Shown here: positions 8,609 to 61,654 of the stretch, in pieces
Position numbering within the stretch: the first letter of the stretch is position 1
How the letters are laid out: the number at the start of each line of letters is the position of its first letter
Origin: Gelatoporia subvermispora B
Lineage: Eukaryota; Basidiomycota; Agaricomycetes; Polyporales; Gelatoporiaceae
DNA length: 64,000 bases
Direction of reading: 5' to 3'
Assembly: GCA_000320605.2 (NCBI GenBank)
Contig: KB445821.1
Coordinates: forward strand, 83,703 to 147,702
The notes under the pieces: generated by a model
Database searches by the model: none
Told to the model about the DNA's origin: nothing
What the model saw: only the letters and a program-made list of their open reading frames with translations
Made by a program: the position numbers and the translations under genes

Positions 8609-10709
8609 CTAGTGTAGAAGAACCCATCTAGACTTGGATCAGTGTTAGCCTCTTACGGGAGAAATGGCAGTACTTACGTGGGGCAGCTGGAAGTCAAGCA
8701 CGATACGTGGCGGACTGTTCGTATCGCCCTCGGAAATTGCGTCCGTGTCCGAGAATGTCTGTGGTACGTCAATCAAGCATCCGAATGACAACATACAGAT
8801 ATCTGCTCACGTCAGCAGGATGCGTAGCTGAGACAGTGCTTGGAATACGGAACTGGCCAGCTAACACTGAAGTGAACTTGGTGCGGTCGCCGGTCATTGT
8901 GCGAAGGCCGGCGGGCATACTACGCAGCTTTTCGCGTGCGTTTAAACTGAGGTACATGACAAATGGCGAGGCTCCAATGAGTACTCAAATGCTCATTTCG
9001 GAGAGATTTGAGGGCTTACGTGGCAATTGCGGTGTTCACATAGCCTGACGACTAATCAGTACAAAAATCGGATACCGAAAGAACAGACGTACATTTGCTC
9101 ACGAGCGAGAATGGAATGACAAACCAGTTTGTGCCGAGGGTTACATTAGACTGTGGAATGTGTCAAAGTGCGCCAAGTATCTAGGCGTAAAGTGGAATAC
9201 TGACTACAGTGATTGCGCAAATAGCGAGAACCCTGTCCCGTGCATCAGGATGGTGTCTCTAACTCAGCGTATAACGACGAACGAAGTAACCAAGCCGGTA
9301 TTGACAGTATACAGGACGAGCACGTTGATGAGCTTGTCCGTCCTACAGGCTTCATCATTCAACTGTGTATACTCTCAGTGAAGCTATCAATCACCTAGAT
9401 ACTCCAGAGCGAATCTTGCGGAGATAGTAGCACAGAGAGCAGGTGATGGTGATGTCAGCTGTCATGCTGCAAGCGAGCCCAGCAGTAGAAGCCCACTATA
9501 ATATGTGAAGTCAGTTCAGAGGGCTCAGTGATGCCGTCAGAACAAACCGATATCGCTGTGAATGTTGAGATAGATGGATCTTGTGCTCTATGATAGTCAA
9601 GCATATGTGAGGTCATCCCGACAAGAAAATGACTTCTGTTCTCACATCCTAACAGTATAAACTGGTAAAACCCCATGCGTTATCATATTCCGGTCGTATG
9701 CCAAGCAACAACTTACACATTCCGAAAGCTGTATGAGAGACCGTTCACTGATCATTATGACATTCCAGGAAAGATTTGAGAACGATGACCAACCAAATTG
9801 TGCGAGTGAGAACGAAGTCTTTCAATGTGTGTCAGCGGAATTATATGGAACCAACCCCGGAGTTTTTGACATACAACCACAACAGGAATTACGATGCTTC
9901 TGCTCACTGGCGTAACATAAGTTTCAGTAGCAAGACGCGGTGAACGGTATAGACTTACGCATCCACACACGTGTGGCGAAGAAACTGTGTTGTGTAGGTT
10001 GGTCAACGGAGAACGTGACAGTTTGGATGGATTTACCACTGGGACACAAGGCCTAGGGTGATCTGTTTAACCATTCTCAACATCACCATGAACTATGGAC
10101 TGAAACTCGCGATCTCTCACCGTCAGAGCGATATCAGCCTATCGTGGCAGCTGGTCAGCCGAAACAGATTGGCATATGCCGTCCAACTCACAGCGATTCC
10201 TCTGGAGAAGTACTGTGAGTATCAGAACTAATCACACGGAAGTAACACCTACAATGGTACCTGTTGAATGGCAGCAAGGTCTCCGAAGTTATGAATCAGG
10301 TACAACCAAGTTCCATAAACGAGACCACCGAGCTGGGCCGTGTCCAGCATTCTGAGCAAGTGGTATGACGTCATCATGCGAGTCTCTAAGTGAAGGAAGA
10401 CGACCACACGGACACGAGGATGCCGACCTAGTGCACAATTCCAGCCTTCGGTCAGAAGCATTGACGGAGCCAGCATCTGTACTCACGAACGCCCGCACAT
10501 ATCGTCGGTCGTCAGGATACCGAGTAAAATAGAGGTATGCTTGCAAGATGGTGATTCCATGGAACCTATATTTGCATCGAATAAATCAAAATTAGGCGAA
10601 CTCAGCGAAGTAGCACTCACAATGCAGCAAACGGTACTGCCAAGAACAGCGCACCACAGTTTGGTATAACAAGTGTTTCTATCGAGTGGTTGGAAATGGG
10701 GGACGCCAT
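8609..10709 (-). CDS. DUF6534 seven-TM membrane protein, copy A
   Basis: Function unknown; a multi-pass membrane protein family expanded in Agaricomycetes. Exons: 10621-10709, 10487-10565, 10414-10427, 10253-10351, 10192-10201, 10121-10138, 10037-10062, 9959-9984, 9875-9906, 9794-9818, 9717-9728, 9646-9661, 9548-9587, 9395-9495, 9283-9342, 9205-9232, 9093-9150, 9020-9044, 8811-8946, 8678-8758, 8609-8632; 999 nt, 332 aa, no stop, all splice sites GT-AG. Landmarks: VIPNCGALFLAVPFAAL (TM1), GITILQAYLYFTRYPDDRR, LDTAQLGGLVYGTWLYL, microexon-encoded GIA-ADIALT-ITLGLVSQC-FFATRVWM (TM4), then the DUF6534 signature ADITITCSLCYYLRKIRSG, TDKLINVLVLYTVNTGLVTS, WFVIPFSLVSKCYVN and LNAREKLR. The C-terminal tail is hydrophilic. 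Exon 1 begins at the ATG aligned in all minus-strand copies. Confidence 0.85.
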
Positions 10710-10749
10710 CGTTCTCAAAAGAATCCGATGCAAGGGCGTTATTTTGAAG

Positions 10750-11730
10750 GAATAGGGGAGTCACTGTCTAGAGAAAATGACATCCGCTGACCCGTATCGG
10801 CTTATCTGGAAGCTCAGGTGGTTCGAGAAATAGCCCGTGATCCCCGTCTCACAGCATAATGATTCAATCATGATAAGAAGGATTCTATCAAAGCAGAGAA
10901 CCACCATAGATGTCACGTCGATCTGGGTTGACGGCATCGACTTTCGTTGCCTGAGAGCTGTGCACATGTTACATCGTCGACATGTCCATACTACCACAGA
11001 TGCAGCCGCAAGACGAGCAGGACATCTCTGTGGTGTGGTCGGCTGTCCTCAAAATCAGAGTATCCAGGGCAAATGCAGTATGTGAGACCACGCTCCAAGT
11101 TTAGCTGTGAATACAGTGAACGTGCAACTGCCACGTTGAGCCGCAGTCGCACAGGAAACCAATCGCAAAGTCAACTTTAGAGAATGTTTCTCATAAGACA
11201 TGATTTCATCAAGGTAGAAAACACAGAAGCCAGGGGGTTGAGATGCTCAAGTGCGTTCGACAGAAGTAGCTACACGGTCTCTGGAAATGGTAGCAATGCA
11301 AGCGGGACTGTCGTCAAACCCGCTTTCGCTTAACGCCATAATGAGCTTACATAATGTATCCGAGTCAAGGGATCCAGTTCGCATCACTGAATGTTTCCTC
11401 CGCGGTCTCTTCTTTCCCTAGCCTCTTGCGAACATTCTGCCCACCCAGACTGTATTCGATCCACTTAGTGCTGGCTGCAACGGAACGAAGTCCGTGAATC
11501 TGATTCTTCGGGGTCCAACAACGGATGTGATTGCTATGAGGCTCACTGTATTGGAGTAAATGGGAAGTTGACTACAAGAGCGAACCTATCAGGAGTCGTA
11601 GTGAGAACCCTGGGTACACAGCTGGGTTACCATCCGTGCTGCGCTTCTTTGCTGTCCATCGCTACCAGAGAAACATGATAAATGACATGACAAATTCCTC
11701 GATACACCCGCGCTGCGCGCAGACCTGCCC
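10750..11730. other. No recognisable gene
   Basis: About 1 kb between DUF6534-A and the SET/MYND gene. No coherent coding frame, repeat or RNA was seen. The part next to 10710-10800 should hold the copy A promoter, but no clear TATA element was found. Confidence 0.4.
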
Positions 11731-11736
11731 CCAACA

Positions 11737-21042: not shown

Positions 21043-22990
21043 TCATCCTAGCAACGCTCGATCAGTCTTTTCTAAAGAAGCCCATTGTGACGAACACACC
21101 ATGCTTGACTTTGTACCTGGCGTCCTGTCGAATGGATGGCCCCTAACGATGATGGTCGACGATCGGGGAGATTGTAGATCTGAGCGCTCGAGCAAGCTGG
21201 GATTAAGCGTCAAACCCGAGTTCATGTGACGCAGCTTCTCCCGCGCGTTGAGACTGGGATGCAGACGTCGAGTGGTCAGCATCAGCATCGGAATACCTAC
21301 TTGTAAAGGCTCACGTTGCGAGAACCGAGTTCACGTAGCCTATGGGAGATCAGCAAGGCCTTGGAGCATAGTCGAGGAAGTGTCACTCACACTTGCTGAT
21401 GAGGCAGAACGGAACAGATAGCCAAAGCGTCTTTGGGAATACGGTGGTCTACGACATAACTAATCTCTCCAAATCTGGACACTCCAGGGCTCACCAGAAT
21501 TATTGCGCACGTCGACACCATGCTGGAGGAGGTCAGAAAGTCGTATGTCCAATCCTCAAAGGACGCACGATGTCAGAACGCCGGTATTTACTGTGTACAT
21601 GACGATCACATTGATTAGCCGGTCGGTTCTGCGCATGCAGGAAGCGATCAGCAGCATTCAGCTGAACATAATATCTAAGGCTCAACTTGAGCATCCCTGA
21701 TCGTATCTTGCGCAGATAGTAGCACAGCGAGGCCGAGATCACGAAATCATTGGCCATGCTGCATCCAATACCTGCTATGGGTGACCACTGCGAATCGACT
21801 GTCATTAGGTAGTACCAGCATCGGGATAATGATGACTCACCGACACTTTCGCAAGGGTTATTTCCAGGTGACTCTTTGATCTAACAAGATGTCAGTGATG
21901 CTTCTCAGACATGCTCCGGACGTACATACATCTCGAAGGCATAGACTGTAGTCGAATAAGCTATTAGGGGTGTAACCTGAGCATGTTTAAAGAGACGTAC
22001 ATATGCCAAGAGCTAAGGGACATGCTGGTGAGTAGGAGGCTGATCTTGTTACAAGAAGCAGCCTACTGAATTGCGCCAGTGCCAGGATAACCTTTCAATA
22101 CTGCATCAAGATCAGATTTCGGATGAGAACATGGAGAGCTTACGATAATGACTGGGATGAAAATGTTGCCTTCGCTTGCTGTATGGCAATGACTCAACAT
22201 GGAAAGCGACTCCTATTTATTGCGGTCTCCTTACTTCTGTACACGCGTAGACCGAAGAAACTGTTCCAATGGGTTGGGTCATTGCCTTTGAGCGTGGATC
22301 CTGGAGCTCACCATTGTACCATCAGGCCCATGGAGATCTGAGAGCTATTAAAATTGGGAGATTGTATCTCAAAGAAGGGCGCACTGTGATCGCGACATCC
22401 TCCTGCGTTGCGGAGTGCCGCATTATTCAGATGTTGTACACCAGAGGAAATTTGACCTACCGCAATTCCACTGTTATCTCGCATATCAGTGACATCCTTC
22501 TGGTGTGCAAGACAAACATACGGTGGGACCAGTTCATTAGCCGAGAGGTTCCCGTAATTGATAACTAGGGACCACCACGAACTGTACAGAATAAAGGCGA
22601 GCTGTAATGTATCCATGATTCTATATCGAATGATGAGCGTGCCTCAAGTGGGTAATGAAAAAGTTCTACTTACACAAGGGCAGTTACCTGCAGCCGTCGC
22701 AAACATGTAATATGGCAAATGAGAAGCAGAAGCAGGCTCACAAATATCTTTAGAATTCTCCGATCATCCCAATAATGTCCGTAGTAGATATAAGCTTGTA
22801 GGGCCGTAATACCATAGAACCTATGAATGCGGCAATCGTTCAGTATCGGACCGTTCAGCACCAATCATGGAGACACGGAGAAACCATTGTCTGAAACTTA
22901 CACAGCACTGAAGACTACCGAGAGGAGCAGTGCTCCGCCATTAGGCACCACCAGCGACTGAATGACTTCCTCAGGAATGGGAGACGACAT
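21043..22990 (-). CDS. DUF6534 seven-TM membrane protein, copy B
   Basis: Exons 22902-22990, 22742-22820, 22674-22687, 22522-22620, 22461-22470, 22385-22402, 22312-22337, 22235-22260, 22144-22178, 22067-22091, 22001-22012, 21930-21945, 21841-21880, 21687-21787, 21569-21628, 21495-21522, 21391-21448, 21315-21339, 21043-21253; 972 nt, 323 aa, uninterrupted. It shares exon lengths and phases with copy A except exon 9 (35 nt). Landmarks: VVPNGGALLLSVVFSAV, GITALQAYIYYGHYWDDRR, MDTLQLAFILYSSWWSLVI, GIA-EDVAIT-ISMGLMVQC-FFGLRVYR across four microexons, NDFVISASLCYYLRKIRSG, TDRLINVIVMYTVNTGVLTS, LNAREKLR. Taking the last exon straight to the TGA at 21043 is the simplest reading; a further C-terminal intron is possible. 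Function unknown. Confidence 0.83.
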
Positions 22991-24131: not shown

Positions 24132-26121
24132 TCACGTTCGGAGGCATATAAGACTTACACTGGTCAACTTCTTCGACGGAACGCTGTACACGGGAGCAGC
24201 GAGGCGCACCTCCGAGACGACCTGCAGTAAGATAAGACGTTAGCAATGTCTCACCAGCATATCACAGAGCACAATGCGGTGTCGACTCACCAATGCCGAG
24301 GGACGATCAGGCTGTGTGCTTTCATAATGCACAAACATGCTGTGGTCAAGCGGAGGTCCGGAATGTATGTTGCGCAGGTTGGCGCGTGCGTTGAGGCTGT
24401 CCAGTGAACTATCTCAGTGACTATTATGTACTTAAGAGTCTACCTGGGAGGGCTTGCTTACGTGGAAAGAACCGAATTTACATAGCCTGGGCTGTTGTCA
24501 GATGTGACGCTACCACCGGATGAGGAGATACCCACATTTGCTGACAAGAGAGAATGGAATTGCGAGCCATAAGCTTTCACTAAATGCGACGGTCTGCGCC
24601 CAAAGTGAAGTAGCTCCATAACGTCTCATCCACGCAATGGCCTTACCAAAACAATAGCGAACACTGCAACCACGCTGTAGAGATGTCAGCACGGATATTT
24701 ATTTGAGGACACTAGAGCTCACGAGGTCAGGAGGCCAGTATTGACTATATACATGATGATCACACTGATCAGCCTGTCCGACCTTAAGATGTCAAAGAGT
24801 TGGATGCAATACGTAGAGCCTAAGTCTGCATCTCACTTGAGTAACCCGGAGCTGAACCTGCGCAGATAGCAACACAGGGAGATTGTAATGAGAAAGTCCG
24901 CCGTCATGCTGCACGCAAGCCCAGTTGCAGCAGCCCACTGCGGTGAAGCCATGGGCAGTCAGAATATGATCAAGGGCGAATTCAACGTACGGATACTTCC
25001 GAGAGTGCTGGAGCAAATTGGGTTCTTTCACTGCGCTGCGGTAAGAAAACGCATCGTACGGGACAGAGAATACCTGCATAAAGGTAGCATAGACTGTAGC
25101 ATCGTGCAAGTCAGTATGCTCCCGGAGTCATCTTTTATGACACTGACAAATTCCGAATGCTAGGAGTACGAAGAACGCTCTCGTGAGTCCATCGTGAAGA
25201 TGCGTACAAGTAGCGATGTACCAAATTGTGCCAATGAAAGGCCAATCTTGTGACCTTATCAGCATACATATCAAGGATTCCGCAAATTAAAGACGAACGA
25301 TCAATATCGGGATGATCATATTTCCTTGGCTCGCTTGGCAGTCCGTTAGCTTTCTAAATCACCTGCATGCATGCTGTCGTACTTCTCCACACACGCATCG
25401 CGAAGAAGCTGCATCAAGATTGAACTCTATGTGTTGTGATTGGCCGAGTAATGTTTTACCTCTGGACGAGAAGACCCATACAAATCTGTTACAAAGGAAG
25501 CCCAAATAGGTATCACGTCTTTTGTATCACAGCAATGGACTCACAGTCACTGCGATATCTGCCTGATTGGACGATGTAACAACACGTTAGGATGTACAAT
25601 ACATGATTCCACCTACTGCGATTCCTCTGTACCAGGGTCAACCAAGATTCGCGGCCTCGAATTAGGTGCTCACGGGGGTATCAATTCGATCGATTGAAAG
25701 TTGCCGTAGTTGGTAACGAGTGACCACCAGGCGCTGTAGATACTGAAGACGATTTGCACTGTATCGAAGGTTCTGCCACGTTCCATGAATATCGCTCGTG
25801 TATATGGTTCATATCGGGATACCTACGCTAGAACTCCAACCCACAGACATGCTATTACCGTCACTCGCTGGGATGAAGGCAGCGGTCACTCACGAAGACC
25901 TTCAGCAATGACCGGTCATTCCAGTACCGGTCGTAATATATGTACGTCTGTAGGACCGTGATCCCGTAGAGCCTGTATTTGGTGCAGTATCAATGTTGAC
26001 ATGCATTACTGGAACCGAGATCAGGAGCTTACAAAGCGTTAAAAACAGCCGAAAGAAAAAGTGCGCCCCCGTTAGGCTCCACGAAGGAATGTATAAGGCC
26101 TTCTGAGTCGGGCACAGACAT
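24132..26121 (-). CDS. DUF6534 seven-TM membrane protein, copy C (probably disabled)
   Basis: Exons 26033-26121, 25894-25972, 25851-25867, 25674-25772, 25617-25626, 25545-25562, 25460-25485, 25383-25408, 25299-25333, 25222-25246, 25148-25159, 25078-25093, 24991-25030, 24837-24937, 24723-24782, 24647-24674, 24536-24593, 24462-24486, 24291-24396, 24132-24221; 960 nt, 319 aa if spliced so. Everything matches the family except microexon 3, whose donor reads ATGTCT where the others have GTxxxx; one base (25850) accounts for it. The alternative GT two bases further on creates a stop at the next junction. The intron after 25078-25093 uses a GC donor (GCAGGT). Landmarks: EPNGGALFLSAVFNAL, GITVLQTYIYYDRYWNDRS, TADFLITISLCCYLRRFSSG, WLAIPFSLVSKCYVN. 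Likely a young pseudogene, or a sequence error at one base. Confidence 0.72.
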
Positions 26122-27552: not shown

Positions 27553-29449
27553 TCAGAAAAATGCCAAACAAACTATTATCTTCAGAAACCGCACACTATC
27601 ATGCCTCCCCGTTGAGAAAGCAATGCCTGGTGCGCGAATGCGACCGGTCACATCCGTTGTGAATTGCACACCGTCGCTGGTCATTGTGATGGCACCTGCG
27701 GGCATGTTGCGAAGTTTGATGCGGGCGTTCAAGCTTTTGCAGAGATAAGTATCGTTCGCTATGCACAATTGGAAGGCGTACGTGGCGAGGGTTGTGTTCA
27801 CATAGCCTATGCTGTGGTCAGTCAAGGTATATTGAAAATGGGTGCGAGTACCTACATTTGCTCACAAGAGAGAATGGTATAACCAGCCAGTTCGTTTTGC
27901 TGAACACGGACGACTACGAGATGTGCGTAAGTAACTATGCCATCTGATAAGCCATGTTGAATTCGGACAATAGTAATCGCGAATATGCCGACCACGCTGC
28001 GACCTCGCTCAGTAATCATCGACGTATGCAATGCGACCTGACGAACGAGGTAATGAGTCCGGTGTTGACGGTATAGATCACCAGAACTCTGATAAGCTTA
28101 TCCGTCCTGACAGCGCTTTCAGTAGGGAGCCCACTGTATACCTCGTGAACTCACTTGGACATTCCGGACCGGATCTTGCGTAGATAGTAGCACAGTGCAA
28201 GCGTGATGACCAAATTTGATGCCATGCTGCAACTTAGTCCCACTGCGGTGCACCACTGTGAGGAGGCATTGGTGAGCCTTTTCACGTCCCCGGAGAATAA
28301 TGTCACGTACAACGAGTTGCGCAAACACGAGAACCGTGCCACTTCTCTGGCTGCGTCGGTGTCAGCGAGATGCAACCCGTGTGGAGGAATATGTTACATC
28401 ATCACCACATAGTCTGAAAAGCAAAGAGGGAATCAGTATGTATCTCGGTTGAGTCTCATGAACACGTACAGATACCGAATGCTGTTGAACATTATCAATG
28501 AGCTCATTCCTGAAGCCAAAGGAGGTAGTCAATGCTTACCAAACTGTAATAGGGAAAGTGCGGTCTTAAGATCTGAGCTTCAGCGTTGGCCATCCATGAT
28601 ATAGGCGGAGCGTACAATTATGAAGGGTAACACCGCATTGCGGCTCACTAGACGAGGATATAAGGAAAATTCTGCTGCAGTATTTCGAATGCTTACTGAT
28701 CCATACACGATGTGCGAAAAAACTACACCACAGTCAGATCTCAGTTGAGACGAGCTTTTCCTTCCAGAACTCTTACCACTGTACGAAAAGCCCGAGAACT
28801 GTCTAGTGGAATGTCGTTCCTGAGCATATCGCACAAAGGAGTGCAACCTGTGCTACTCACCGTCATGATTGTCTCTGCCTGTGCACCAAGTGTCAATAAT
28901 CCACGGCTATAAGCATCATGTCAAATGTACATACCGCTATTCCACTATCCAGTGTCATGAATAAGCTACGTGAGTAACAATGAGGACATCCTGAACGCAC
29001 AATGAAAGGAGCTCTATGGAGGCCAGGTTTCCGTAGTTCGGAATGAGATACCACCAAGCGCTGTAAATCACAAATACGAGCTGCGCTGTGTCGCAGAGAC
29101 TACAAGCAAAATATGAGTCCATTCCTAAGATAACGTGACCGGAATGTACGCACGAGATAACTGCCACCTTCCAGATAGATCAGAGAGTCGAGTATTGAGT
29201 GCGCGGCAATGACTCACGAAGAGTTTCAAGTACAGCGGGTCATCGGCATACCGATCATAGTAAAGGTATGTTTGCAAGACCGTGACACCGTAAAACCTGT
29301 CAATTGCATATGACACGCACAGTTGGCCCGATGTCCAAAGGATGGATTCTGTTTACTCACAGAGAAGCGAAAGGGACTGCCAGAAAGAGCGCGCCACAGT
29401 TTGGCACAACAACGGAGCGAATCAGCTCGGCGGGAATGGGAGACTCCAT
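27553..29449 (-). CDS. DUF6534 seven-TM membrane protein, copy D
   Basis: Exons 29361-29449, 29218-29296, 29154-29167, 29001-29099, 28935-28944, 28861-28878, 28777-28802, 28697-28722, 28616-28647, 28540-28564, 28470-28481, 28398-28413, 28311-28350, 28155-28255, 28047-28106, 27969-27996, 27856-27913, 27782-27806, 27553-27733; 939 nt, 312 aa, uninterrupted, all GT-AG. Exon 9 is 32 nt as in copy A, and A and D are also similar in TM1 (VVPNCGALFLAVPFASL), which suggests they are sister copies. Landmarks: GVTVLQTYLYYDRYADDPLY, DTAQLVFVIYSAWWYLI, SNLVITLALCYYLRKIRSG, TDKLIRVLVIYTVNTGLITS, WLVIPFSLVSKCYVN, LNARIKLRNM. Function unknown. Confidence 0.84.
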
Positions 29450-31148: not shown

Positions 31149-33205
31149 TCAATGCATTGTATGCTGCACGTACATCGCGCATTTTCGAGTCTCCTCTGAT
31201 GTCATGGTCATGCACCACGTCGATTTCTGAAGGTACCTGGCCAATAACAATGAGCGGCTGGGGGCTTGAGCAGCACACGCATTACGAACGCTCTCGTGCA
31301 CATCCCGAGTAACGGTTGTTGATTTAGTGACCCGTACGTGGTTTAGCTCAACCTGGGTAGCAATTGTACCAACAGTCAAAGTATGAGGCAGGTTACGCAG
31401 TTTGTCGCGCGCGTTCAATCTGCAGCTCAAGGATTACTACTGTACAATAATGATCGTTGCAGGAGACTTACGTGGCAAGTGCGGAGTTGACGTAGCGTAT
31501 GCATATAGTTAATGCATCAGCTTTGGCAGTCGGATTTTCCAACAAGTCAAGAACACCAACATTTGCTGACGAGGCAGAAAGGCAGTAGTAGCCAAAATGC
31601 AGTGGCGAACACATTTGACTGAGCAGCCCGCGCACATGTCAGAGCATGACATCATGATACAAAGACACACATACCAGTATAATTGCGCATATCGCTACAA
31701 CACTTGTACGTGGTCGGAATCAAAGCAGAGATTTGTGATGAAAATATTGACGAACGAGGTTAGCAGTCCGGTATTGACCGTGTAGACCATTAGGACATTG
31801 ATCAACTTGTCGGTCCTGCCAACAGAATTAAATCGGTACGTCAGCCATAGACCTGGTAGACTGACCCTTGGTACGCACCGCTTTACTCCAGAGCGGTTCC
31901 GGTGGAGATTGTAGCACATGGCCATGGTGATGAGAAAGTCTCCCGCCATGCTGCATGCGAGTCCTGAGGTAGCGGCCCACTAAACCTCAATCAGACAGAT
32001 AGTGCAAGCTCACAGCCCCAGTTACATGCCGCAAGTTTCGGTAAAGCTGCCGTTTGGTGCGTCTTCTGTCTGCAAAGTCATGTCAACAAAATTTCGAACA
32101 TCTTTGCAGTCTAAGAGGACTGCTTACACAATCGAGGCATAGTCTTCCGTGAGGAGAAATAGTAAGATAGCTCGGTCCCACGAGACCGTACGTATGGACT
32201 CACATGGTCCAAACACTATGATGACCGATCAGTCGATTGCTGTGGTATATGAAGCGGTCATACCCCATTGTGCCAATGACAATGTTACCTACGAGAAATG
32301 ATAGCATGATGAGATGAAGTCAAATGTCCACTAAGCAGATGAGGTACGCACTATAATCGAAGGAATCACGAGCTTGCGTGATGTCTCAATATTATTGCCA
32401 CTCGCTGCGCAACATAAGTGACGATGCTGAAAGTCAAGGAATGATAAAAAACCCCTACTTAGATAAACACGCATTGCAAAGAAGCTATATATTGCGACGG
32501 TTCAGAGATTCGAGCAAGGAGTGGCAGGCGGCTGTACCTCTGAACGAAAAGGCCGATAGATACCTGTGAGGAAATACACATCAGGGAAAATGCGCATACG
32601 GTGTATCCTAAGTGACGACACTAACTGTAGTGATGATTTCTGCCTGTAGAGACCAGTATCGAAGTGACGTAGAGCAGTACATAGAGGAGCAAACGTACCA
32701 CAACGCCACTGAAGCCTTGTTAGTACGCTCAGAATCCACGCATTTCCCAACAGGCAACACTCACGAGACATAGATTGCGAGCGACGCCGGATTTCCATAG
32801 TTCGATATGACATAGAACCATACCGTGTCAATAACAGAGATCATTTGCGCAGTGTCGGAGATCCTGTCCGAGTCATACGTTACTAGGGTGGAATGGAAGA
32901 GATCCATGATAAACGCAGACCATAGTGCCGCGACCTGTCACAAAACTGGCCTCAGCGTTGACAGTGCTCTGAAATTGATAAAACATACGAAGAGCTTCAT
33001 CCATATCGAGTCCCGACTATAGCGATCATAGTAGGTAAAGGTCTGGAGGATGGTAATTCCGTAAAAGCTGCAGAGATGGTATCAGCTCAATGAAAACCTA
33101 CACACATGGGACTCACATCGCGCTGAATGCCATGGCCAGAACAAGAGCACCACAGTTCGGCACGATCTGTGTCTGGATAATCTCAGAGGATATGGGAGGT
33201 GCCAT
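31149..33205 (-). CDS. DUF6534 seven-TM membrane protein, copy E
   Basis: Exons 33117-33205, 32989-33067, 32921-32934, 32765-32863, 32699-32708, 32626-32643, 32538-32563, 32459-32484, 32352-32404, 32264-32288, 32204-32215, 32128-32143, 32030-32069, 31879-31979, 31756-31815, 31675-31702, 31561-31618, 31472-31520, 31149-31419; 1074 nt, 357 aa. The acceptor used by all other copies for exon 18 reads CATAC here instead of an AG, but an AG 24 nt upstream keeps frame and adds eight residues before YVNSALAT. The intron after exon 13 has a GC donor (GCATGT). Exon 9 is 53 nt, shared only with copy F. Landmarks: IVPNCGALVLAMAFSAM, GITILQTFTYYDRYSRDS, GDFLITMAMCYNLHRNRSG, TDKLINVLMVYTVNTGLLTS, LNARDKLRNL. 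Function unknown. Confidence 0.8.
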
Positions 33206-34178: not shown

Positions 34179-36189
34179 TCACCCTGAGGACCGTCGAGTG
34201 GCAAAACAGCCTGCTGCTAGAGCCATCATGAAATAGGAATGGGTCTCGACCCAACAAAACAGTATACAACAGACCTTATCCCGTATCTTGTGGGAGGTAT
34301 CACTTGACCTTTGTACACGTAGTCGACCTGACTCCATCTCTGCGATGTCGATCGTACTAAATGTCACGGTAGCTGATATGTTGCGCAGCCTATCGCGAGC
34401 ATTCAGGCTAGGTGTGATGCCGACAAGATGGTAAGTGCATTTGTGAGTCAGACACTCTAGACATTGGTGGAGCGCTGGAACTTACATTGCAAGTGCTGAG
34501 TTTACGTAGCCTGTTACATTTTGTGAGAAGCAGCGTCATAGCTTGTCGGGTTGAACCTGGACAGCTCACATTTTCCGATAAGCAAGAACGGCAACAGTAG
34601 CCAGAACGTTGCTAGGAGCATATTTGACTGTGGACGATGGATCAGGCGATGTCAATGTTGCTAGTAGCCTTGACAACGCACTAATATAATCGCAAGGATC
34701 ACAACAATTCTGGAGGCGCAGCGGTATTAGAGGGAAGAATGCTCATGGAACAATGCCTACGGACGTTGGAACCAATCCAGAGTTGATAGTATACACGATG
34801 AGCACGTTGATTAACTTGTCGGATCTGAATATATCAGCAAGTCAACAAGAATCCACCGATCTCATTGTTGTCTCCTCACCGCTTGAGACCTGAGCGACTC
34901 TTGTGTAGATTGTAGCACATAGCAGTAGTGATCAGGATGTCGCCGGCCAGATTACATGCAAGTCCAGCTGTGGAAACCCACTGAGTAACGTCAGCTGCAA
35001 ACAACACGGCCCCTGAACAATACAACATACCGCAAGTGAAGGGAGTGTTGATGTACTATGAGCGTTTTGACTGATGATCTAATTCAGTGTTTAAGACGGT
35101 TAGTGAAGCGAAGACATTTACGCTGTTGTAGCATAGTCTGGGCTGTAGCGTCAGACCGACTGCGAGAGAATGTTGAGGCCAACACTTCAAAGATGCTCAC
35201 AGACTCCAAATGCTGAAGGTGCACGTCAGGCTGCTTCTCGAGAGGTGACTCCCAGAGGACATACCCCATTGCGCAATGGACAAACCCACCTACACTGTCG
35301 TCAGCGGCTGCCAGCACATATCCACGCCCTATGCACCACCTCTTATACTCACAATGAGAATTGGGATTGTAGCCTTCCTCTGGGCCGAGAGATAAGCCCC
35401 GCTCACTAGGCACAATACGTTTGGAGGTAATAGACCGAATCAAAATGGCTTACTCAGATACAGACGTACCGCGAAGAAGCTTCAATTATTTAGTGACAGT
35501 TGTACGGGGATCAACCGATATTACCTCTGCACGAGCAACCCTATGGAGACCTACAGGGTATTTGTCCTACAGGGCGTATGCAATCGGATATCGAGGAGCT
35601 TACTGTGATGACAATCTCCGCCTGCGATCGCACCATCTTCAACTCAAGTATCAGCGGGATAAAGCATGAACACGCACCACAGTTCCTCTACAGACTTTGA
35701 GCATGTTCATGATTACAACTCAGACGTTCAGGCTACTCACGGGGCGTATGCTGAGAGAGATGCAAGATTGCCGTAGTTCTCAACGACGTAGAACCAAACA
35801 ATGTCAATGACGGAGGCCATCTGTGCTGTGTCTAGTACCCTGAGATGGTGGGACGATGTTGTCAAAAGGATGTCGCAATTTCGAAATGGAAGAACACACA
35901 ACAGCAAAGCGACCTACCCGCGCCGTTAAATAAGCCTTAAGAGCTCACTCTAAGTAAAAATGCTGACTTACGTAGCACTTCAACCAGGCCAAATCTCGAG
36001 AGTATTTGTCGTAGTAAGTATAGGTTTGTAAAATGGTGATACCGTACAATCTAACAATCATTTAGTATGTGAATGTACGGATTGCGCGTTTGTTCTGTAC
36101 ATTGCATTAAATGCTGCAGCGAGCACGAGTGGCCCGCATTTGGGTACAACCTGTGATTGTATGACGTCCAAGGTAGGGGCAAGAGACAT
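34179..36189 (-). CDS. DUF6534 seven-TM membrane protein, copy F
   Basis: Exons 36101-36189, 35972-36050, 35900-35913, 35741-35839, 35678-35687, 35604-35621, 35525-35550, 35454-35479, 35353-35405, 35265-35289, 35201-35212, 35122-35137, 35031-35070, 34880-34980, 34765-34824, 34682-34709, 34570-34627, 34486-34510, 34179-34407; 1008 nt, 335 aa, uninterrupted, GT-AG throughout. Closest to copy E: 53-nt exon 9, YYDKYSRDLAW in loop 1, AQWG at the end of exon 10, CYNLH in the DUF6534 signature. Landmarks: VVPKCGPLVLAAAFNAM, LDTAQMASVIDIVWFYVV, GDILITTAMCYNLHKSRSG, SDKLINVLIVYTINSGLVPT, LNARDRLRNI. The last exon is read straight to the TGA at 34179; a C-terminal intron is possible. Function unknown. 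Confidence 0.84.
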
Positions 36190-48519: not shown

Positions 48520-49915
48520 GGGGACCGACCTCAGGTCACCGTCGGACCCATATAACAGGCCCAGGGTGGCGCCGCATCGCGGGACGGGCGGGGATACAAG
48601 CAGCGCAAGACTGAGTGGCGTTCGCACCAGTATCTTCCTGCCCGTTTGAGCGAATCCCGCCAGACAAGATAGCAGCACACCGGAGGCGCAAGATGGTGCC
48701 ACTGCAGACCGCGTGCAACCAAAGCCGTAGTGCGGCGGGGCGCTTGACCGTGCTCGCTGCCGTGCAGTACTCCCAGTATGGCGTACTACGATCATGCGGC
48801 CGAGTTGGGCTGCGAATTCGCCTCCTGACCTTTGATCATCTGTCATGCCGCTGTAGATCACGCCCGAGGGTGCCCTCCGGAGCGCGTCGCTTTCGCCCGG
48901 CTGATGGTACTGATGCAGAGCGGGTGAAGAACACACTGCGCGTCTTGAAGTGTGGTGGGAAGCACTGTGTTATGTCGCTTCGGAAGACTTGTGAGCGGTG
49001 TTCGGTCGGTTTGAGATGGAACACCGGGCGTCCGGAGCAACTAGCTGGCGTCGATTGTAGCTACCAGGAATTGAAGCTCGCCGTTCCACGGGTGAGACGC
49101 TTTGGTGATCCGTGAGCACTTCTGGAAAGTGACATGCTCGGGCCGCTCCCCATAGAAAGTTTCGGAATGTAGCTGAATCTATGGGGGGTGGATGCAAGAT
49201 ATCTCGAACATGCTGAGGCAAGAATCGCGAAGCCATGAGCAAGTCGAGACGCCCTAGTCGCCGGGAGGTCGCCGTGTGCTGCGCATCTACCCACAGTCAC
49301 GGGATGGGCGCTTCTGGATCAACCGTCGACCAGTCTCGACCTCTGAAAGTTCCCGGTCGCTTTCTTCCGCAATTCTGGTTGCATTTGACTCTCTGACTCG
49401 ATGCTGTGCTTTCTCTGGAAGAGACCTTCCGACTGAAGTATGCTTGCTATTACTGCTGGGCAATCTCACCGGACCGATCACGCACGTTGCGGCCATGATC
49501 GCCACGTATACCATCCGCTACGTTGGGGATTTATCAGTTTCAACATGGTGCATCGAGGCTTGAAGCCAGAAGTGCAGAGCGGCCACCTTGGTCAAGATGA
49601 GAGAGGACTCGGGATGCGGATGATTATGGTGTTACCAGGTGACTCAACGTTGATCGCCGATCGGATATCGGTCGATATATCGCTGAGAAAGGAAATCGAT
49701 GTTGATTGCCTGGTTGTGGCCCATTTCGTGTCCTCGTTTCTTCTTGATTCCTTTATCGATTACTTTCAGCTCCTTTTATTTACCTCAATCCCACGATCCA
49801 AGTACTTGCACACATCCTCAACCTCCCAAGCCCAAAAATCTATAGGCAAACTCAAGACTTCTGTTGTTGGTTGTATCGAGATTTGTACTCAAAACGCGTC
49901 CGGATCGCTTGACCT
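48520..49915. other. Divergent intergenic region, no gene recognised
   Basis: 1.4 kb between the divergently transcribed MFS and SET/MYND genes. Long minus- and plus-strand frames at 48.3-49.1 kb overlap each other and carry no motif; they reflect GC-rich composition. Promoters of both neighbours must lie here. Confidence 0.4.
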
Positions 49916-49923
49916 CTAGATTC

Positions 49924-51693
49924 ATGACTGAAGTCGCTCGCCCTGTAGACATCACCTCACTGTGCTATCATTGTGCGACTGCTAGAGCAGATGATGCCCC
50001 ACCCCTGAGAAGATGCTCAGCGTGCCACAGAGTGTGGTACTGTGTACGTCTCCTTCGACTCTGGCTATCATGCTTCAAAATAATGGCTGACAAATTAAAG
50101 CAGACCGCGGAGTGTCAGAAGAAGCACTGGAAGGTCCACAAGCCCATGTGCCGCACCAAAGGCTCGGACAAGCAGGTCAAGGGCCTCTCTGCTGGTCTTG
50201 CGGCGATCGAAGCAAGCTCTGGGCTACTTATCAGGGAAATGGATCCCGTGCAGCAATCAAGCTCGACGAACCCTGAACAATACAGACTGACTTCACTCCC
50301 CGCGACGTACTTCGATCCGGCCAAAAATGATCCCGACGGCTGGACCGAATGCATCCTCCGCCCTGGCATGAAAGAGGCGCTCCTCGCGCAGCCCGGGTTC
50401 CCGATCCGCGTGCCACGCCCCTCGTCACCCGCGCACCGTATCGGCCCCATTGACGGTGCCGGCCTGGGCATGTTCGCGACGCGCGCGATCGAAGCGGGCG
50501 ACCTGATCTTTGCCGAGCGCCCGCTCCTGCTCGGGCCTGGCGCGTGGACGTATGTGCTCGAGCGAGACCCGGGGACGGACCGCATGGATATGCTCTTCCG
50601 CGAGTGGGAGGAGTACATGAAAGTTGCCGTGGACAGGATGGATCCGGCAAAGCAGGCTGCGTATCGTGCGCTGTCGAATGCGCATCTGGACGACGGTTCC
50701 CTGCCCCTGGTCGGCATCTTAAGGACGAATGGCTTCTCGGTAACTGGTGTACTGCGCAAGGTGGTCCCGGATCTGCCAAAGGGCGAGATCCACGAGCTCA
50801 CCGCGATTGGCGAGGTGCTTTCGCGTGTGAACCACAGGTGCGTCTATCTCCACTCCCCGTGCATACGGCCGGCTTAGAATTCTCTCAGCTGCCGGCCCAA
50901 CGCACACGTCCGGATGGACACGCACTCGCTCTCGCTGCAGCTCGTTGCACTACGTCCCATCGCCTCAGGAGAACAAGTCACGGTCGCTTACACCGACATC
51001 CTCGCCCCGTACACAACGCGCAAGCGCAAGCTCGCGCCGTACGGATTCACATGCTCCTGCCTCTCCTGCGCGGACCCCGTGCGCTCGGACCGGCGCCGCC
51101 GCACGCTTGCCCTCGCGCGGCGCGTCCTCCACCGCGAGGACTTCACCGTCTGGCTGCACCCGGCCTCGGGGCTATCCGACGAGCACATGTCCGGGCTCTT
51201 GGAGGAGGTTCGCGAGAAGATCGAGGCGGAGGGCCTGTGGGACACGCCGATGTACGCGGAGTACCTCATGCGCATGCGCGACATGTACGCCGCGCTGGGT
51301 AAAAGGGAAGAGCTGGAGAAGGCCGCGCTGAGGGTGCTAGAGTACGCGTCGGCGCACGAGGGGTACATCGAGCCGCTTGTCAGGAAGAGTGCGGCGATCG
51401 TGCATGGGCACCCGGGGAACTGTGAGTTTTGGGACGTTAGAGCGAAGTTTAGGGAGAACCCTCCCCCTGTGGACGAGTCTCTCAGCGAGGAAGAACTCGA
51501 GCGCATGTACAAGAGCAAGCAAGATAAGGAAGAGTCCGACGAGAAAAAAGAGCCAGACGAGAAGCAGCAGGACCAGGTGAAGACGGATGAGGGACAAGAA
51601 GAGGGCATCCAAAAACAAGAACAGGATAATGCCCAACAGCAAAACCTGGAGCAAGAAGCGAAGACTGCAATGGAGACTACTCCGACTGTTTGA
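49924..51693 (+). CDS. SET and MYND domain protein, copy 3
   Basis: Exons 49924-50043, 50101-50837, 50889-51693; 1662 nt, 553 aa. The MYND zinc finger is CYHCATARADD...CSACHRVWYC followed, across intron 1, by ECQKKHWKVHKPMC. SET part: GAGLGMFATRAIEAGDLIFAE, LRTNGFSVTGVL, NHSCRPNAHV across intron 2, GEQVTVAYTDILAP and post-SET YGFTCSCLSCADP. After the helical domain the C-terminus (from about residue 480) is a Glu/Lys/Gln-rich, probably disordered tail, absent from copy 1. SMYD family proteins methylate lysines; the target here is unknown. Intron positions are the same as in copy 1, so the two are paralogues in opposite orientation, 37 kb apart. Confidence 0.92.
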
Positions 51694-51699
51694 TTCCTG

Positions 51700-52745: not shown

Positions 52746-52774
52746 GACTCATCCCACCTACAACTACTCTTGTG

Positions 52775-54667
52775 ATGTCGCTTGGGACCACCTTCGGAGC
52801 CATCCTGCTCGGTGAGCATATCTGTCTCTATCTGCGTAGCTTGCCATTCATGTGCCGCTTAGGTCTGGTTACATCAGCAGTGTGAGCAAGGGATTCTATT
52901 CCGGACGTCAACATATTAAAGTCAACGGCGCCAGCTTGTACGGCATCACAACGGTTCAGACCTACATCTATTTCCGACGCTATGGAGATGATAAGCCCGT
53001 CCTAAAGTATACCGTAAGCCAAGGCCTGTTCCATTTTCATACAATCCATACGTAGTTTTCACCGATACCAATAGGTATCCGTCTTGTGGTATGCTCTATG
53101 AATGGTGAAGATATACTTTACTCATCGTATGCGAAGGGTCCTCGACACGTTTCATCAAGTGTTGGTAACACACATTGGGTATACTTTGTTGGTGGTGCGA
53201 TGGGGTAGTCTGACCGCTCTTGTGGTACCCCCATGGTATGCATCCCCATCTACTTCTTGTGCAAAAAACTTGGCTCAATGTGCTTTGGGGAATGATCAAT
53301 AAGGAGCATTCCGGTGAGCGCTGCCTTGTTTGTCTGGTAGGGTCAAGAATATTTCATATCTCGATAGGCGACCATTATCTGCACGGTACGCTCAGATACC
53401 ATGCCGTACAGCGGTGTGTTGACTGTTCGCAGGTTATCAGCGATTCAATTGTCAGGCTGTGAGCACTTTGATCTGCTCTCAAGTCCGCTAATCAAACTCG
53501 AATTATAGCCTGTACGCCTATAGGCTCCTGAAGTGTGCGTATTACTCCTCTCAGAGAAACATCTACTTCATCCGCTTTTAGTGAGCGGCGGCAACTATTG
53601 GATAACACTTCCGACGGTATGCCGTCCAGAAATCTCCGATGTATAGGAACCTATGAGGCGCTAATCAGTCGCAGGTCATCGGTAGTGCGATGAATCTAGG
53701 TATCGCCTCTTTCTTGAGCATTGTACACATCACTTAGTGGTGACTCGGAATGTTCACAGCTGCTAGCACAGGCAAGTTTTTTGGGCTATATAATTTGCAC
53801 TTCTGACAATTCATGCTTCAGCGTACACTGCCCAAGTGTAAGTGGCATGATATTTTCGACAACTGCGTTTCAAACGGGCTGCGTTATAAAATTTCAGGGC
53901 CAGACTTGACTTCGACAAGTGGGCAACAGTCAAGGTCAGTAGTGTTTTCACAGTGCCCGATAACTGAAACCCTTACGATCTATAGTGGAGTTTCTACTGG
54001 GGGACTGCCGGTGGATACACAGCCGATCTGTGGCTTGCTATCTGTTTTGTGGCGATCTTGATCAGAAGCCGCACCGGTTTCCGAAGGTTTGAAAGCCAGT
54101 TCATTGAGATATGTTTCTCTTCAGCCACCCACTCATCTACACCTGGCTGTCCAGGACAGACTCCGTGATACGCAGACTAATGGTCTACTGTGTGAATACT
54201 ACACTACTCACAAGGTAAGTGTATTCTGTCGACGTCTGTTTCATAGCTTATACGCGGCCCAGTCTTACTCTGCTAGTAATGGTGGTCACGGTGCGTGTTT
54301 TTGGACGCTTGTTCTTCAACGGTTATCAACACCCTAAGGAGCAGTTCACTGTCATGCCGGACAATCTCGTCTACATCGCATTCTATATGCTGTGGCCGAA
54401 GTGTCGGTAATCTCATTTGTTGACTGGGCATCACGCAGCTGAAAGCACGCAGTGCTTCTGAACGCCGGCTTAGCCACTTACAACGCTAGAGATAGTCTAC
54501 GCGGAGATGCACATTCTCCCAGCGAGCTGCTATCCATCCCTTTGTCCCACACGAGTTACGCATCCGCTTTTGGCTCAACGAGAGCTCCCACCAATCCGGT
54601 CGGTTCGCGGATTTTTCTGGAAGATACTTGCTCACTTTCAAGAGCAGGTTCTAAATATTCACATTGA
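52775..54667 (+). CDS. DUF6534 seven-TM membrane protein, copy G (probably disabled)
   Basis: Exons 52775-52811, 52863-52881, 52935-53013, 53075-53088, 53137-53235, 53304-53313, 53368-53385, 53433-53458, 53509-53534, 53582-53616, 53675-53699, 53738-53749, 53822-53837, 53898-53934, 53986-54086, 54155-54214, 54263-54290, 54339-54402, 54453-54667; 921 nt, 306 aa. Two doubts. The expected start, seen in copy I 58 nt before the first donor, is not ATG here, so the internal ATG of MSLGTTFGAILLG was taken. The 12-nt microexon 12 has donor ATGTTC. Alternatively a 9-nt exon at 53767-53775 with GT-AG ends could replace it. Landmarks: GITTVQTYIYFRRYGDDKP, LDTFHQVLVTHIGYTLLV, TADLWLAICFVAILIRSRTG, VMPDNLVYIAFYMLWPK, ATYNARDSLR. 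Confidence 0.72.
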
Positions 54668-57872: not shown

Positions 57873-58848
57873 TACAGCACGCGGAGAAGCAGAAGGAACT
57901 GCTGCAACGAGTGCTCGAACCATGTGGCATGACTCTTGAACAGCTAGCACAGAAGATTAATCACTATCAGCGCATCCAGACGAAATCCGCGAAAGTCCTC
58001 GCGAGCGACCGAGCCAAGGTACGTAAGCTTTGGACACACGCCTTCGCCTCCGAGGCTCTTCAGGATAACGTGGTATTGATAGAAGCTGGGTCATCGGTGT
58101 ATGTGTTCGGTACCTCGGAAACAAAGGATTACCTGCCGAACGACCTGGACAAGGCGTTCTCACAGTACGATGAATATCGAGAGAGAGAGCAGCAGACATC
58201 TGAAGAGTGCGTTCCTATCTCATTGGTGTACTACGACGGTCTCATCTGTACGAAGCCACTTCTGGACAGCGATTTATTCTTCCACTGCCGCTGATCTCCT
58301 GTACTATGATATGATCATCGGTCCGGTGCAGAGTATACCTGGTGTCCGCACCAGTTATACCAGGTGTTGTGCTCAGCTGTACGTGGCCGTGTCATTTGCG
58401 CTTATACGTGCGCATGCTCAGTCGCGCCACCAACAATGCCATTATGATGCGGGAGACATTGCTTCAGGAACACCAGAACCTGATGGCCCAAGCAGATGCG
58501 CAGCGGGAGTACCACACCCCACTGGTAGTCTTTCGGACGGTCTCCACAGAGCCCCCACGACCTTACAACAGCGATCATGCCATCGAGACCTCAATCTTCC
58601 TCTGTATAACCGCTGAGCGCGCCAGGGGCCTTATTGCGGATGTTAGGGCGCTCAGCACCCGGAAAGTCAGATTTGCCGGTAGCTCCCATGATGTGTCCGA
58701 AGGTGTCAAACTTCATTGCTGGAAGTTTATTGCTGCGTACGTTCAGTCATCGACGTACGATGTTGTCCTCGCTGAGAGCCGAACCCGAATCGAGGTGACC
58801 GAGCAGGAGCTTCTTGATCTCCTCTTGGACAATGAGGAGATGGTTTAA
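57873..58848 (+). CDS. Unidentified protein, possibly incomplete
   Basis: Two long coding blocks in the same direction. The first (57880-58207) reads EKQKELLQRVLEPCGMTLEQ, LAQKINHYQRIQTKSAKVLA, WTHAFASEALQDNVVLIEAG, with an AG acceptor at its start. The second (about 58425-58848) reads NNAIMMRETLLQEHQNLMAQ, HCWKFIAAYVQSSTYDVVLA and ends EVTEQELLDLLLDNEEMV before TAA. A small block between them (SSTAADLLYYDMIIGPVQ) needs one frame change that I could not explain by splicing. Helical, soluble, no motif recognised. No 5' exon with a start codon was found. It lies between DUF6533-H and DUF6534-I on the same strand. Confidence 0.45.
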
Positions 58849-58859
58849 CTCTCTTTCAA

Positions 58860-59500
58860 GTTGCTCGGCCAGGAGTTCTCCTTATATTGACAGCTCAAAG
58901 CAGCCCAATTTGACAGGATATCCAAAAGTTCAAGCACCCCGGCATGCTACTTCAGACATCACTTACTGAAGATCATGGTGGTGACTGTTTGAGCTCTGCG
59001 GCGCCGGCAAAGATGATGACGTGATGCTCAGTACTGGCGCACACGGTGAGCGTGATGCCGTAGCCTGAGACTGAAGAGCATATAACGACTGTCCTGTGAA
59101 TGGGATCAATGCTCGATTCTCATGGGCTCCGATGCTGACGTTGAGCAGTGACGGGGTGGGGGAACTTTGCGAACGCGGCAGAGTTCGGACCTGTTGTCCC
59201 AGTAGATATTGTCGCCCTTAGTCATGGCGCCGATCCCCTTCTGGCAAATACGGTAACAAATGTTATATCCTTAGATCGCCCGAAATGTGGCCATGTGCAG
59301 ATACGGCTGCCTGGGCTCTAGTGCCAAGGCACCGACGTCGAGCGACAATGGAAGCTTGCTGTGGCACCCGAACTCGGAGCCGCATCGACAGCATTCAGTC
59401 GATAACGAGCGACTCTCTGCCGATGACGACCTATAGAAGCCCGGGCAGTCTCATGTCTTCCGACCTACAAGCACGTCCCATCTCCCTTGAAAGTGATCCA
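58860..59500. other. No recognisable gene
   Basis: Upstream of DUF6534-I. A minus-strand block ATISTGTTGPNSAAFAKFPH near 59150-59210 is coding-like but isolated. Confidence 0.3.
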
Positions 59501-59508
59501 AGATAGAG

Positions 59509-61654
59509 ATGGCTCCGTACCTCGTGCAAGATTCGCTCAATAACACTGTGGGCGCCTGTCTTCTCGGTGAGTTGGTTTCTCTGAACTCTATATGCTATCG
59601 TAATCTGACATACGGCTCGCGCCTAGGGCTCGTCGGGGCGTCGATGTGAGCATGATCCATGTCTACTTGTCTCGGTGCCAGTGACAACCAGCTGGTAGAA
59701 TGTATGGTGTGACAAACATCCAGATTTATACCTACTACACCAAATATCGAGATGACAGGCTTACTACCAAGTTGATTGTTCGTGTCTAAATCCCCCTCAA
59801 ACTCTTCTGTCTGTCTTATAATCTTACCACAGGTCTTTTCCCTATGGTATGTAGATACAAGTTGTCTGAGTTGCGGATGCATTTGAGTGATGAGTTCAAT
59901 TTGCAGGATTTTAGATACAGTGCACGAAGTGTTCGTCATCGATTCCGTCTATATAGACTTGGTTACACGGTTTGGTGACTTGGTGGCGTTGACACATCCT
60001 CCATGGTATGCCAATCGCATGGTCAACCTCATCAACATGCTCATAAACGTATTTGGATCCCAGGAGCACACTTGTGAGGTATATTCGACATGCGGAAGGA
60101 GTCAGATGCTGACGTACGTTGCGCTCTGGCAGGCTGGGGTGGTCTTGACTGTGAGTTGCATGACCTGACCCAGACCCCAGGCTCCTCGAGAGGCAGAGCT
60201 GATGAGCGCCCCACGTGGGACTGGGTTGACTCAGGGGTGTAGCAACCTTTTCGTACGAATGTGAGTCCAGCTAAGACCATGAAAATGTTCCCTTCAACGT
60301 TCCACTGTGCCTAGGATCCTAGCCCGTAGGCTCTACAAGTGTGCGTTCATTTCTCGCGGCTCATTGGTAATTGACCCCACGCTGACTGTGTTTTCTAGTG
60401 ACCGGTAACAATTGGTACTTGCTGGTACCGAATGTGAGTTCGTGCTCAACTCTGAACTTTCGGCGGCATCATAACAGTGGCATGGGCCCTAGGTGCTTGG
60501 TGCTATCATGAATCTAGGTTCGCCCATACCCCTCACCCCTCCACTTAACATATTTGTGAGATCTAATATCATGTTCCGATACATAGTGGCGAGCCTAGGT
60601 AAGTCCTCACAAGGACTCTTGCGTGAACCTGTGTTGTTGAGCCCACATATGCGATTCTCCCCGATAGTCTTCGCCATCCAAGCGTCTGTACCTTTGTCTC
60701 TCCGTATCCCCGCTGTGCATCTCACCCACCTACATATGCAGTGCTCCTCTCGATTTCTTCCAGTGGACCCAGATAGACGTGAGTCATGTCGGACTCATAC
60801 AAACTGGAACTTAGGTACTAAACTCCACTATAACGATTCAATGCGAAGTGGACCTTCTACTGGGGTACCGCTGCCGGGTTCTTGAGCGACCTCTGGCTTG
60901 CCGCGTGCTTGATTGTTTTGTTCAGAAATTCGAGAACTGGGTTTCGTAGGCAAGTGTATAGTTTCTTCACAGTAAGGGCGAGAAGGCTTACTGTTATGAG
61001 GTTCTGAAATTCAGCACGGATTCAGTCCTCCATGTCCTCATGGTGTATTGCATCAATACGACGCTGGTCACGACGTGAGTTTTTGTTTCCCGTATAAATG
61101 ACCAGCATGCGGCTGACTGACCCACAACGCAGCTTGTGCGAGCTTGCAACGCTGATCACGGTACGCGTGACTTTCTGTCCCCGTGTCGGGATGCAAATCC
61201 AAGCAAAGGTGGATCTAGCTGACCTTTTTGCAACTCGCGCAGTTCGCCCTGATGCCAAATACGAGTGTCGACTACATCTTCTACCTGCTCTCCCCAAAAC
61301 GTGCGTTGTGCTATCCCGCAGACTTTCCTGACCTCCAGCATTGCACTAACCCGGACGGTCCGCTGCACATACATGCGTCCCAGTGCTCCTGAACGCCTTG
61401 CTCGCAACTTACAATGCGCGCCAAGACATGCGTAAGCTCGCGCACGCTCAGGTGCCCCTGGTGCTGAGGGCGACCGAGGTGACAACGGGCTCGGTCCGTT
61501 TTGGCTCTGCGAGCTCGTTTGGACGGGTGAGCTGTCAATGCTTACTCGTGGATGCTGTGTGCTGACTATGTTCGGGCAGGTGATAGATATTGAGGGTGGA
61601 AAAGACGAGCCCAATCGGGTGCTGGGAGAAGAACGTGTTTTACCAACATGTTAG
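59509..61654 (+). CDS. DUF6534 seven-TM membrane protein, copy I
   Basis: Exons 59509-59566, 59627-59645, 59699-59777, 59833-59846, 59907-60005, 60064-60073, 60133-60150, 60235-60260, 60315-60340, 60399-60433, 60493-60517, 60587-60598, 60668-60683, 60742-60778, 60849-60949, 61015-61074, 61133-61160, 61243-61300, 61384-61526, 61580-61654; 939 nt, 312 aa, uninterrupted. One GC donor (after 60949). It keeps the 14, 99, 10, 18, 26, 26, 25, 12 and 16 nt internal exons of the minus-strand copies but has two first exons (58 + 19 nt) where those have one of 89 nt. Landmarks: GVTNIQIYTYYTKYRDDR, LDTVHEVFVIDSVYIDLV, LSDLWLAACLIVLFRNSRTG, LMPNTSVDYIFYLLSPK, LLATYNARQDMR. Function unknown. Confidence 0.85.

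What the first reader, a model, noticed from the sequence alone, without database searches (positions are those of the whole stretch)
8609..61654. Array of eight DUF6534 genes built from conserved microexons
Seen in sequence: eight paralogues (A-F minus, G and I plus) share one exon pattern. Exons of 14, 99, 10, 18, 26 and 26 nt follow each other, then 25, 12 and 16 nt, then (in most) 40 or 37, 101, 60, 28, 58. Phases are identical in all. About half of each gene is introns of 45-65 nt, and up to nine exons per gene are under 30 nt. Protein sequence between copies is widely diverged while exon lengths are almost frozen. Six copies read through 19-21 exons without a stop. That is hard to explain unless the splicing pattern is under selection. 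Whether the genes are expressed, and what these seven-TM proteins do, is unknown.
Basis: partly seen in the sequence, partly recalled or inferred. Interest (0 to 1): 0.88.

Follow-up and report, generated by a model that had tools for sequence, protein, structure and literature searches.

The report
Receptor-like genes stitched from microexons
A white-rot fungus carries dozens of copies of a receptor-like membrane protein gene that is cut into about twenty short coding pieces, and most of the cut points have stayed in place to the base although the proteins now share only about 30% of their letters.

Summary
The window is from Gelatoporia subvermispora B. The exon chain 14-99-10-18-26-26, sought by length, splice dinucleotides and open frame alone, occurs at 7 places; 200 shuffles average 0.015. 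Spliced alignment puts all 17 core introns in 7 of 8 window copies (C is disrupted) and in 21 of 37 copies on 13 contigs, at median 30% pairwise identity. Elsewhere introns are cleanly missing and microexons are fused to neighbours. Fourteen of 14 homologues from unnamed read or metagenome assemblies hold every residue of nine microexons; nine sit on contigs too short for the introns.

The parts
8769..10709 (-). Copy A, DUF6534 7TM gene; 17/17 core introns. Exons: 10621-10709, 10487-10565, 10414-10427 (14), 10253-10351 (99), 10192-10201 (10), 10121-10138 (18), 10037-10062 (26), 9959-9984 (26), 9875-9906 (32), 9794-9818 (25), 9717-9728 (12), 9646-9661 (16), 9548-9587 (40), 9395-9495 (101), 9283-9342 (60), 9205-9232 (28), 9093-9150 (58), 9020-9044 (25), tail from 8946; the public protein suggests a further tail exon
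   Evidence: core model contained letter for letter in public protein P0010
21043..23089 (-). Copy B, 17/17 core introns; the start codon may be the downstream ATG (aligned part 21172-22990)
24240..26121 (-). Copy C, 15/17 core introns; the 79+14 exon pair does not fit (83+7 with a 38-nt intron), doubtful there
   Evidence: public protein P0017 begins only downstream
27553..29449 (-). Copy D, 17/17 core introns
   Evidence: core model contained letter for letter in P0025
31149..33205 (-). Copy E, 17/17 core introns; GC donor after the 40-nt exon; second 25-nt exon reads as 49
   Evidence: public protein P0002 holds intron sequence and lacks microexon residues; Obba rivulosa P0001 aligns at 75%
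34179..36189 (-). Copy F, 17/17 core introns, 53-nt loop exon
   Evidence: public protein P0016 is truncated and lacks the residues of the two 26-nt exons
52757..54667 (+). Copy G, 17/17 core introns plus the 19-nt exon; GC donor after the 12-nt exon; start codon not fixed
   Evidence: missed by the first two fits
59509..61565 (+). Copy I, 17/17 core introns plus the 19-nt exon
   Evidence: public protein P0024 holds extra sequence around the 12-nt exon

Best explanation
A large family of seven-transmembrane, GPCR-like proteins (DUF6534) whose common gene in this fungus already held about 17 short introns, so that helix 3 is assembled from exons of 10, 18, 26 and 26 nt and helix 4 mostly from exons of 25, 12 and 16 nt with the ends of their neighbours. 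Tandem and dispersed duplication spread the gene. Each intron of about 55 nt carries its own donor, branch-like motif and acceptor, so it is most likely recognised across the intron and removed as a unit; exon size then hardly matters. Exon lengths stay frozen because the microexons encode helix interior, where indels are harmful, and because introns are lost rarely. Shown: gene structure, shared positions and phases, coding constraint, fused homologues. Strongly suggested: inclusion in mRNA of relatives. Inferred: that the 17 introns are ancestral to the class, intron-definition splicing in a stepwise order, and receptor function (outer half variable for ligands, inner half conserved for a common partner).
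Confidence: 0.8

Rival explanations
1. The microexon chain is kept because its splicing matters: it works as an all-or-none gate, since skipping most exons or keeping an intron breaks the frame.
For: Seven of the nine microexons (all but 12 and 18 nt) are not multiples of three; introns change rarely over a very long tree; 37 copies share most of the chain.
Against: The 8 introns beside exons of 18 nt or less account for 17 of the 24 minimum changes; leaving out doubtful copies C, L030, L031, L033, L040 and one shifted site in L043, my hand count is 8 of 12. That is the opposite of preferential keeping. Two other classes do without the chain. Intron sequences have diverged beyond recognition.
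Confidence: 0.1
2. The microexons are artefacts of fitting; the true genes have fewer, longer exons or are pseudogenes.
For: Public proteins of C, E, F and I differ from the microexon models; copy C does not fit cleanly.
Against: Length-only chain search, fused homologues, drop at third codon positions, core models of A, D and four other copies contained in public proteins, and 14 of 14 unnamed-assembly homologues without a missing microexon residue.
Confidence: 0.03
3. Recent duplication alone explains the shared pattern.
For: Tandem arrangement in the window.
Against: Median 30% amino acid identity among the 37 copies, saturated synonymous sites between window copies, introns not alignable; copies lie on 13 contigs.
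Confidence: 0.02
4. Introner-like elements inserted the introns recently.
For: L037 carries extra introns inside the 79- and 99-nt exons.
Against: Of 743 introns compared with short-word BLAST at E <= 1e-3, no similar pair at different positions and one at the same position; a shuffled control also gave one pair.
Confidence: 0.05

Closest known systems
DUF6534 family (PF20152), proposed as a new fungal GPCR class in PMC12842992 (passages and section 3.5 read)
   Same: Same Pfam domain, 7TM, many copies in Agaricomycetes
   Different: The held main text has no occurrence of 'intron' or 'exon'; its Ste2 passages that I saw concern known receptors, and I saw no fold comparison of DUF6534 with Ste2
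Conserved microexons of land plants (PMC8831610, passages read)
   Same: Tiny coding exons conserved in position and phase, often misannotated, sometimes merged to a longer exon by intron loss
   Different: There 45 clusters of exons of 1-15 nt, with tags spanning 3 to 5 exons; here about ten short exons stand in one gene, seven of them in two helices
Microexons in P450 genes of Phanerochaete chrysosporium (PMC1184071, passages read)
   Same: White-rot fungus, introns of 45-55 bp, microexons of 2-10 aa, tandem clusters with shared structure
   Different: The passages read describe no chain shared by tens of paralogues at about 30% identity
Micro-exon genes (MEGs) of Schistosoma (PMC10526429, passages read)
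   Same: Genes of 10-20 very short exons, hard to annotate
   Different: Exons mostly multiples of three, long introns, secreted proteins; here mostly not multiples of three, short introns, membrane proteins
Ste2, class D GPCR (PDB 7ad3)
   Same: Best VIA-align row for both models, 256-257 residues, 3.6-3.7 A
   Different: 8-9% identity; no Pfam match to a Ste2 family at E <= 1 in six proteins; Ste2-like receptors are stated to be confined to Ascomycota (passage of PMC12842992)

Membership tests
DUF6534 (PF20152) | Score above Pfam gathering cut-off 28.2 | tested here: met
   Public proteins of A, D, I, E score 71.7, 66.8, 53.1, 48.2; C, D, E match over the cut-off piece by piece in DNA, A and B do not in DNA. 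B, C, F and G were not scored as whole proteins; the listings give PF20152 for the public proteins of C and F.
GPCR (broad) | Seven transmembrane helices, N outside, C inside | tested here: met
   Seven long helices in two models; K/R content 0.19-0.29 around loops 1, 3, 5 and the end of helix 7 against 0.02-0.09 around loops 2, 4, 6. Prediction only.
GPCR (broad) | Couples to a G protein on ligand binding | not testable with these tools
   Needs an assay
Class D GPCR, Ste2 | Ste2 fold | tested here: inconclusive
Class D GPCR, Ste2 | Sequence match to the Ste2 family profile | tested here: not met
   Only PF20152 and one chance row at E <= 1 for six proteins; no GPCR in the PDB profile search
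Conserved microexon genes (plant type) | Coding exons of 15 nt or less conserved in size and phase across homologues | tested here: met
   14 nt in 36 of 36, 10 nt in 31 of 31, 12 nt in 33 of 33 exon instances that have both flanking core introns, within one genome
Conserved microexon genes (plant type) | Inclusion shown by RNA-seq of the same gene | not testable with these tools
   No reads; cDNA-like contigs of relatives only
Schistosome MEG | Exons mostly multiples of three; secreted product | tested here: not met
   7 of the 9 microexons are not multiples of three; predicted 7TM product
Introner-derived introns | Introns at different positions alike in sequence | tested here: not met
   0 pairs among 743 introns of this family; other genes not tested

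The most novel reading that the evidence does not exclude
DUF6534 is an unrecognised Ste2-fold (class D) receptor family of mushroom-forming fungi, and its old chain of mostly frame-breaking microexons makes receptor expression depend on complete stepwise splicing, so that a change in splicing state could switch a whole receptor repertoire on or off.
Probability: 0.08. Interest if true: 0.92.

Novelty: new variant of a known kind. Interest (0 to 1): 0.6.

Why it matters
It gives a natural test of how small an exon can be under intron-defined splicing, with paralogues in the same genome that lack single introns as controls. It shows that public models of a large candidate receptor family are partly wrong at microexons, which affects any functional work. 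And the fold match and the inside/outside conservation make the proposed receptor role of the family testable.

Tried and rejected

The first fits missed introns in copy G, L021 and L026; after allowing GC donors more freely and rebuilding the profile they were found. L040 and L033 stayed irregular, L030 reads 10 nt in place of the 16-nt exon, L043 shifts one junction and L037 one junction.

The ends of gaps of 3 or more columns in listed proteins of other species fall within 0.7 column of the same junctions in 12 of 34 cases (4.4 expected, binomial 0.0008). I counted these by hand after leaving out the G. subvermispora proteins; the 0.7 limit was set after seeing the list and the two ends of a gap are not independent, so I take it only as a hint that the introns exist in other genera. 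Insertions there were too few to test.

No DNA of other fungi was searched (none is held in the collections I could use), so sharing between species at DNA level is untested. dN/dS among window copies is saturated and gives only the direction of selection. Ten of the 27 ORFs of 150 aa or more listed were scanned with Pfam: one hit. L048 (fragment) was dropped before the tree and the refit. P0033 was left out of the unnamed-assembly count because its nearest copies belong to another class. E's public protein and Obba homologue favour a 53-nt loop exon, but the refit used 35 and one search counts it so.

Paper searches listed no paper that I could recognise as describing this gene structure. Of the four papers that hold 'DUF6534' I opened one; for most others only titles and starts of abstracts were seen.

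Full report
What the window is. It is part of contig C31 (211,011 bases) of a 37.7-Mb assembly of 52 contigs. The lengths of contigs C1, C4, C8, C18, C19, C22 and C31 equal those of contigs holding proteins named CERSUDRAFT_* of Gelatoporia subvermispora B, and several of those proteins contain models made here letter for letter. So this is that white-rot fungus (also called Ceriporiopsis subvermispora, recalled).

The observation. A search using only exon lengths 14-99-10-18-26-26, GT or GC donors, AG acceptors, introns of 40-90 nt and no stop found seven loci in phase 0, the phase of the genes; phase 1 gave two alternative paths at one of the same loci. A GT-only version gave 7 bins of 2.5 kb against a mean of 0.015 and a maximum of 1 in 200 dinucleotide shuffles, and a mean of 0.058 and a maximum of 2 for 120 permutations of the exon order. 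After refitting with GC donors allowed more freely, seven of eight have all 17 core introns; copy C lacks a clean 14-nt exon. All eight models have no stop inside.

It is genome-wide. Of 47 copies refitted (one fragment, L048, left out), 37 share 13 to 17 of 17 core introns and 21 share all; these 37 lie on 13 contigs. Their pairwise amino acid identity runs from 22% to 90%, median 30%. One copy shares 5, three share 3 and six share 0 or 1; these have other introns, and the three have other short exons. The 37 group together on a tree of the first-fit proteins, but the support of that branch is weak (50). Two further introns, at columns 21 (13 copies) and 251 (24 copies), divide the 37 between them. 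The search for copies keeps only the best candidates, so the numbers are lower bounds.

The microexons are coding. First, single introns are cleanly missing in other copies, and the microexon is then continuous with its neighbour: 10+18, 99+10, 25+12, 12+16, 16+40, 35+25, 101+60, 60+28 and 28+58. Inside the 37 no such fusion covers the 14-nt or the two 26-nt exons; those are fused only in the other classes. Second, in nine exons under 30 nt of the seven intact window copies, identity is 0.50, 0.61 and 0.30 at codon positions 1, 2 and 3. Third, six core models, among them window copies A and D, are contained letter for letter in public proteins. Fourth, 14 of 14 homologues known only from sources marked lgn or jgi, in the lists shown to me (13 among the 120 of 399 hits listed, plus P0013), contain every residue of nine microexons. 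Nine of them (P0013, P0054, P0058, P0096, P0101, P0104, P0118, P0126, P0130) have a longest contig of 1,007 to 1,437 bases, which leaves at most about 535 bases beside the reading frame, not enough for 17 introns of 48 bases or more. They are most simply cDNA; none of the 47 copies here is intronless. They come from relatives, not from the window copies, and a transcript with a skipped exon might not have entered such a list.

Public models are often wrong at these exons. The public proteins of copy E (P0002), F (P0016), C (P0017) and I (P0024) differ from the microexon models, that of the copy on C4 (P0004) lacks exactly the 12-nt exon, and that of the copy on C22 (P0125) has an 18-residue insert at one core junction. 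Over 131 other listed proteins, whole microexons are absent in 1 (14), 1 (18), 1 (26a), 2 (26b), 2 (25), 3 (12) and 1 (16) cases. B and G did not appear in my three protein searches.

Why the lengths are frozen. Mapped on the predicted structure, exons 10, 18, 26 and 26 hold residues 95-121 of helix 3 (94-122), and exons 25, 12 and 16 hold 132-149 of helix 4 (126-151). Of 568 exon instances with both flanking core introns, 547 have the modal length and all 21 others differ by multiples of three; 16 of the 21 are in the two exons that span loops, and none in exons 14, 10, 18, 26, 26, 25, 12, 16 and 28. The second 25-nt exon, in helix 7, has one exception (49 in copy E). Not counted there, because a junction is displaced, are L030 (10 in place of 16), C (83+7), L043 (32+54 in place of 28+58), L037 (37+7 in place of 18+26) and irregular stretches of L033 and L040. 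Coding constraint on helices and inherited introns therefore explain the pattern. If splicing of microexons were specially protected, the introns beside them should change least; in fact the eight introns beside exons of 18 nt or less carry 17 of 24 minimum changes, and 8 of 12 by my hand count without the doubtful fits. Introns themselves have diverged beyond recognition: 743 introns gave one similar pair, between the two closest copies, and the shuffled control also gave one.

How it is spliced (inference). In the 37 copies introns have a median of 55 nt, +5 G in 59-100% by position, and a CTNAY motif in 66% against 32% after shuffling (the fit gave a small bonus for a branch motif, so 66% is an upper figure). 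With such introns, recognition across the intron is expected and a 10-nt exon is no obstacle, but neighbouring introns probably cannot be worked on at the same time, so removal should be stepwise. Basidiomycete exons down to 1 bp are reported for Cryptococcus (PMC3990503, passages).

Selection. dN/dS is 0.07, 0.11 and 0.12 in three close pairs (L025-L041, L010-L029, L023-L044). Between window copies synonymous sites are saturated (pS 0.70-0.87) with pN 0.21-0.55.

Verdict. Real, broader than reported, and explained by ordinary protein constraint; the selection-on-splicing reading is possible but not supported by the loss pattern. Conserved microexons in plants, and microexons in white-rot P450 genes, are known (PMC8831610, PMC1184071). 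What looks new is a chain of about ten short exons in one gene, shared by tens of very diverged paralogues, in a candidate receptor family.

Noticed in passing
L037 (G000:C3:2203700-2207600): A copy fitted with 22 exons: the 79-nt exon is split into 27+15+37 and the 99-nt exon into 48+51, one core intron is missing and another lies nearby; looks like intron gain in one lineage.
   Followed up: partly
L020, L035, L036 (C16, C11, C3): A second DUF6534 class with its own short exons (for example 12, 14, 25 nt) at other positions, sharing only three core introns.
   Followed up: partly
window 49864-50877 (+): ORF with a MYND finger (PF01753) beside the array.
   Followed up: no
window 31472-31520 (-): In copy E the next-to-last exon is 24 nt longer than in the other copies and its upstream intron only 40 nt, as if the old acceptor was lost and an upstream AG is used.
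   Followed up: partly
window 37686-38380: 695 bases read N (withheld or gap) inside long overlapping ORFs on both strands.
   Followed up: no
   Followed up: no
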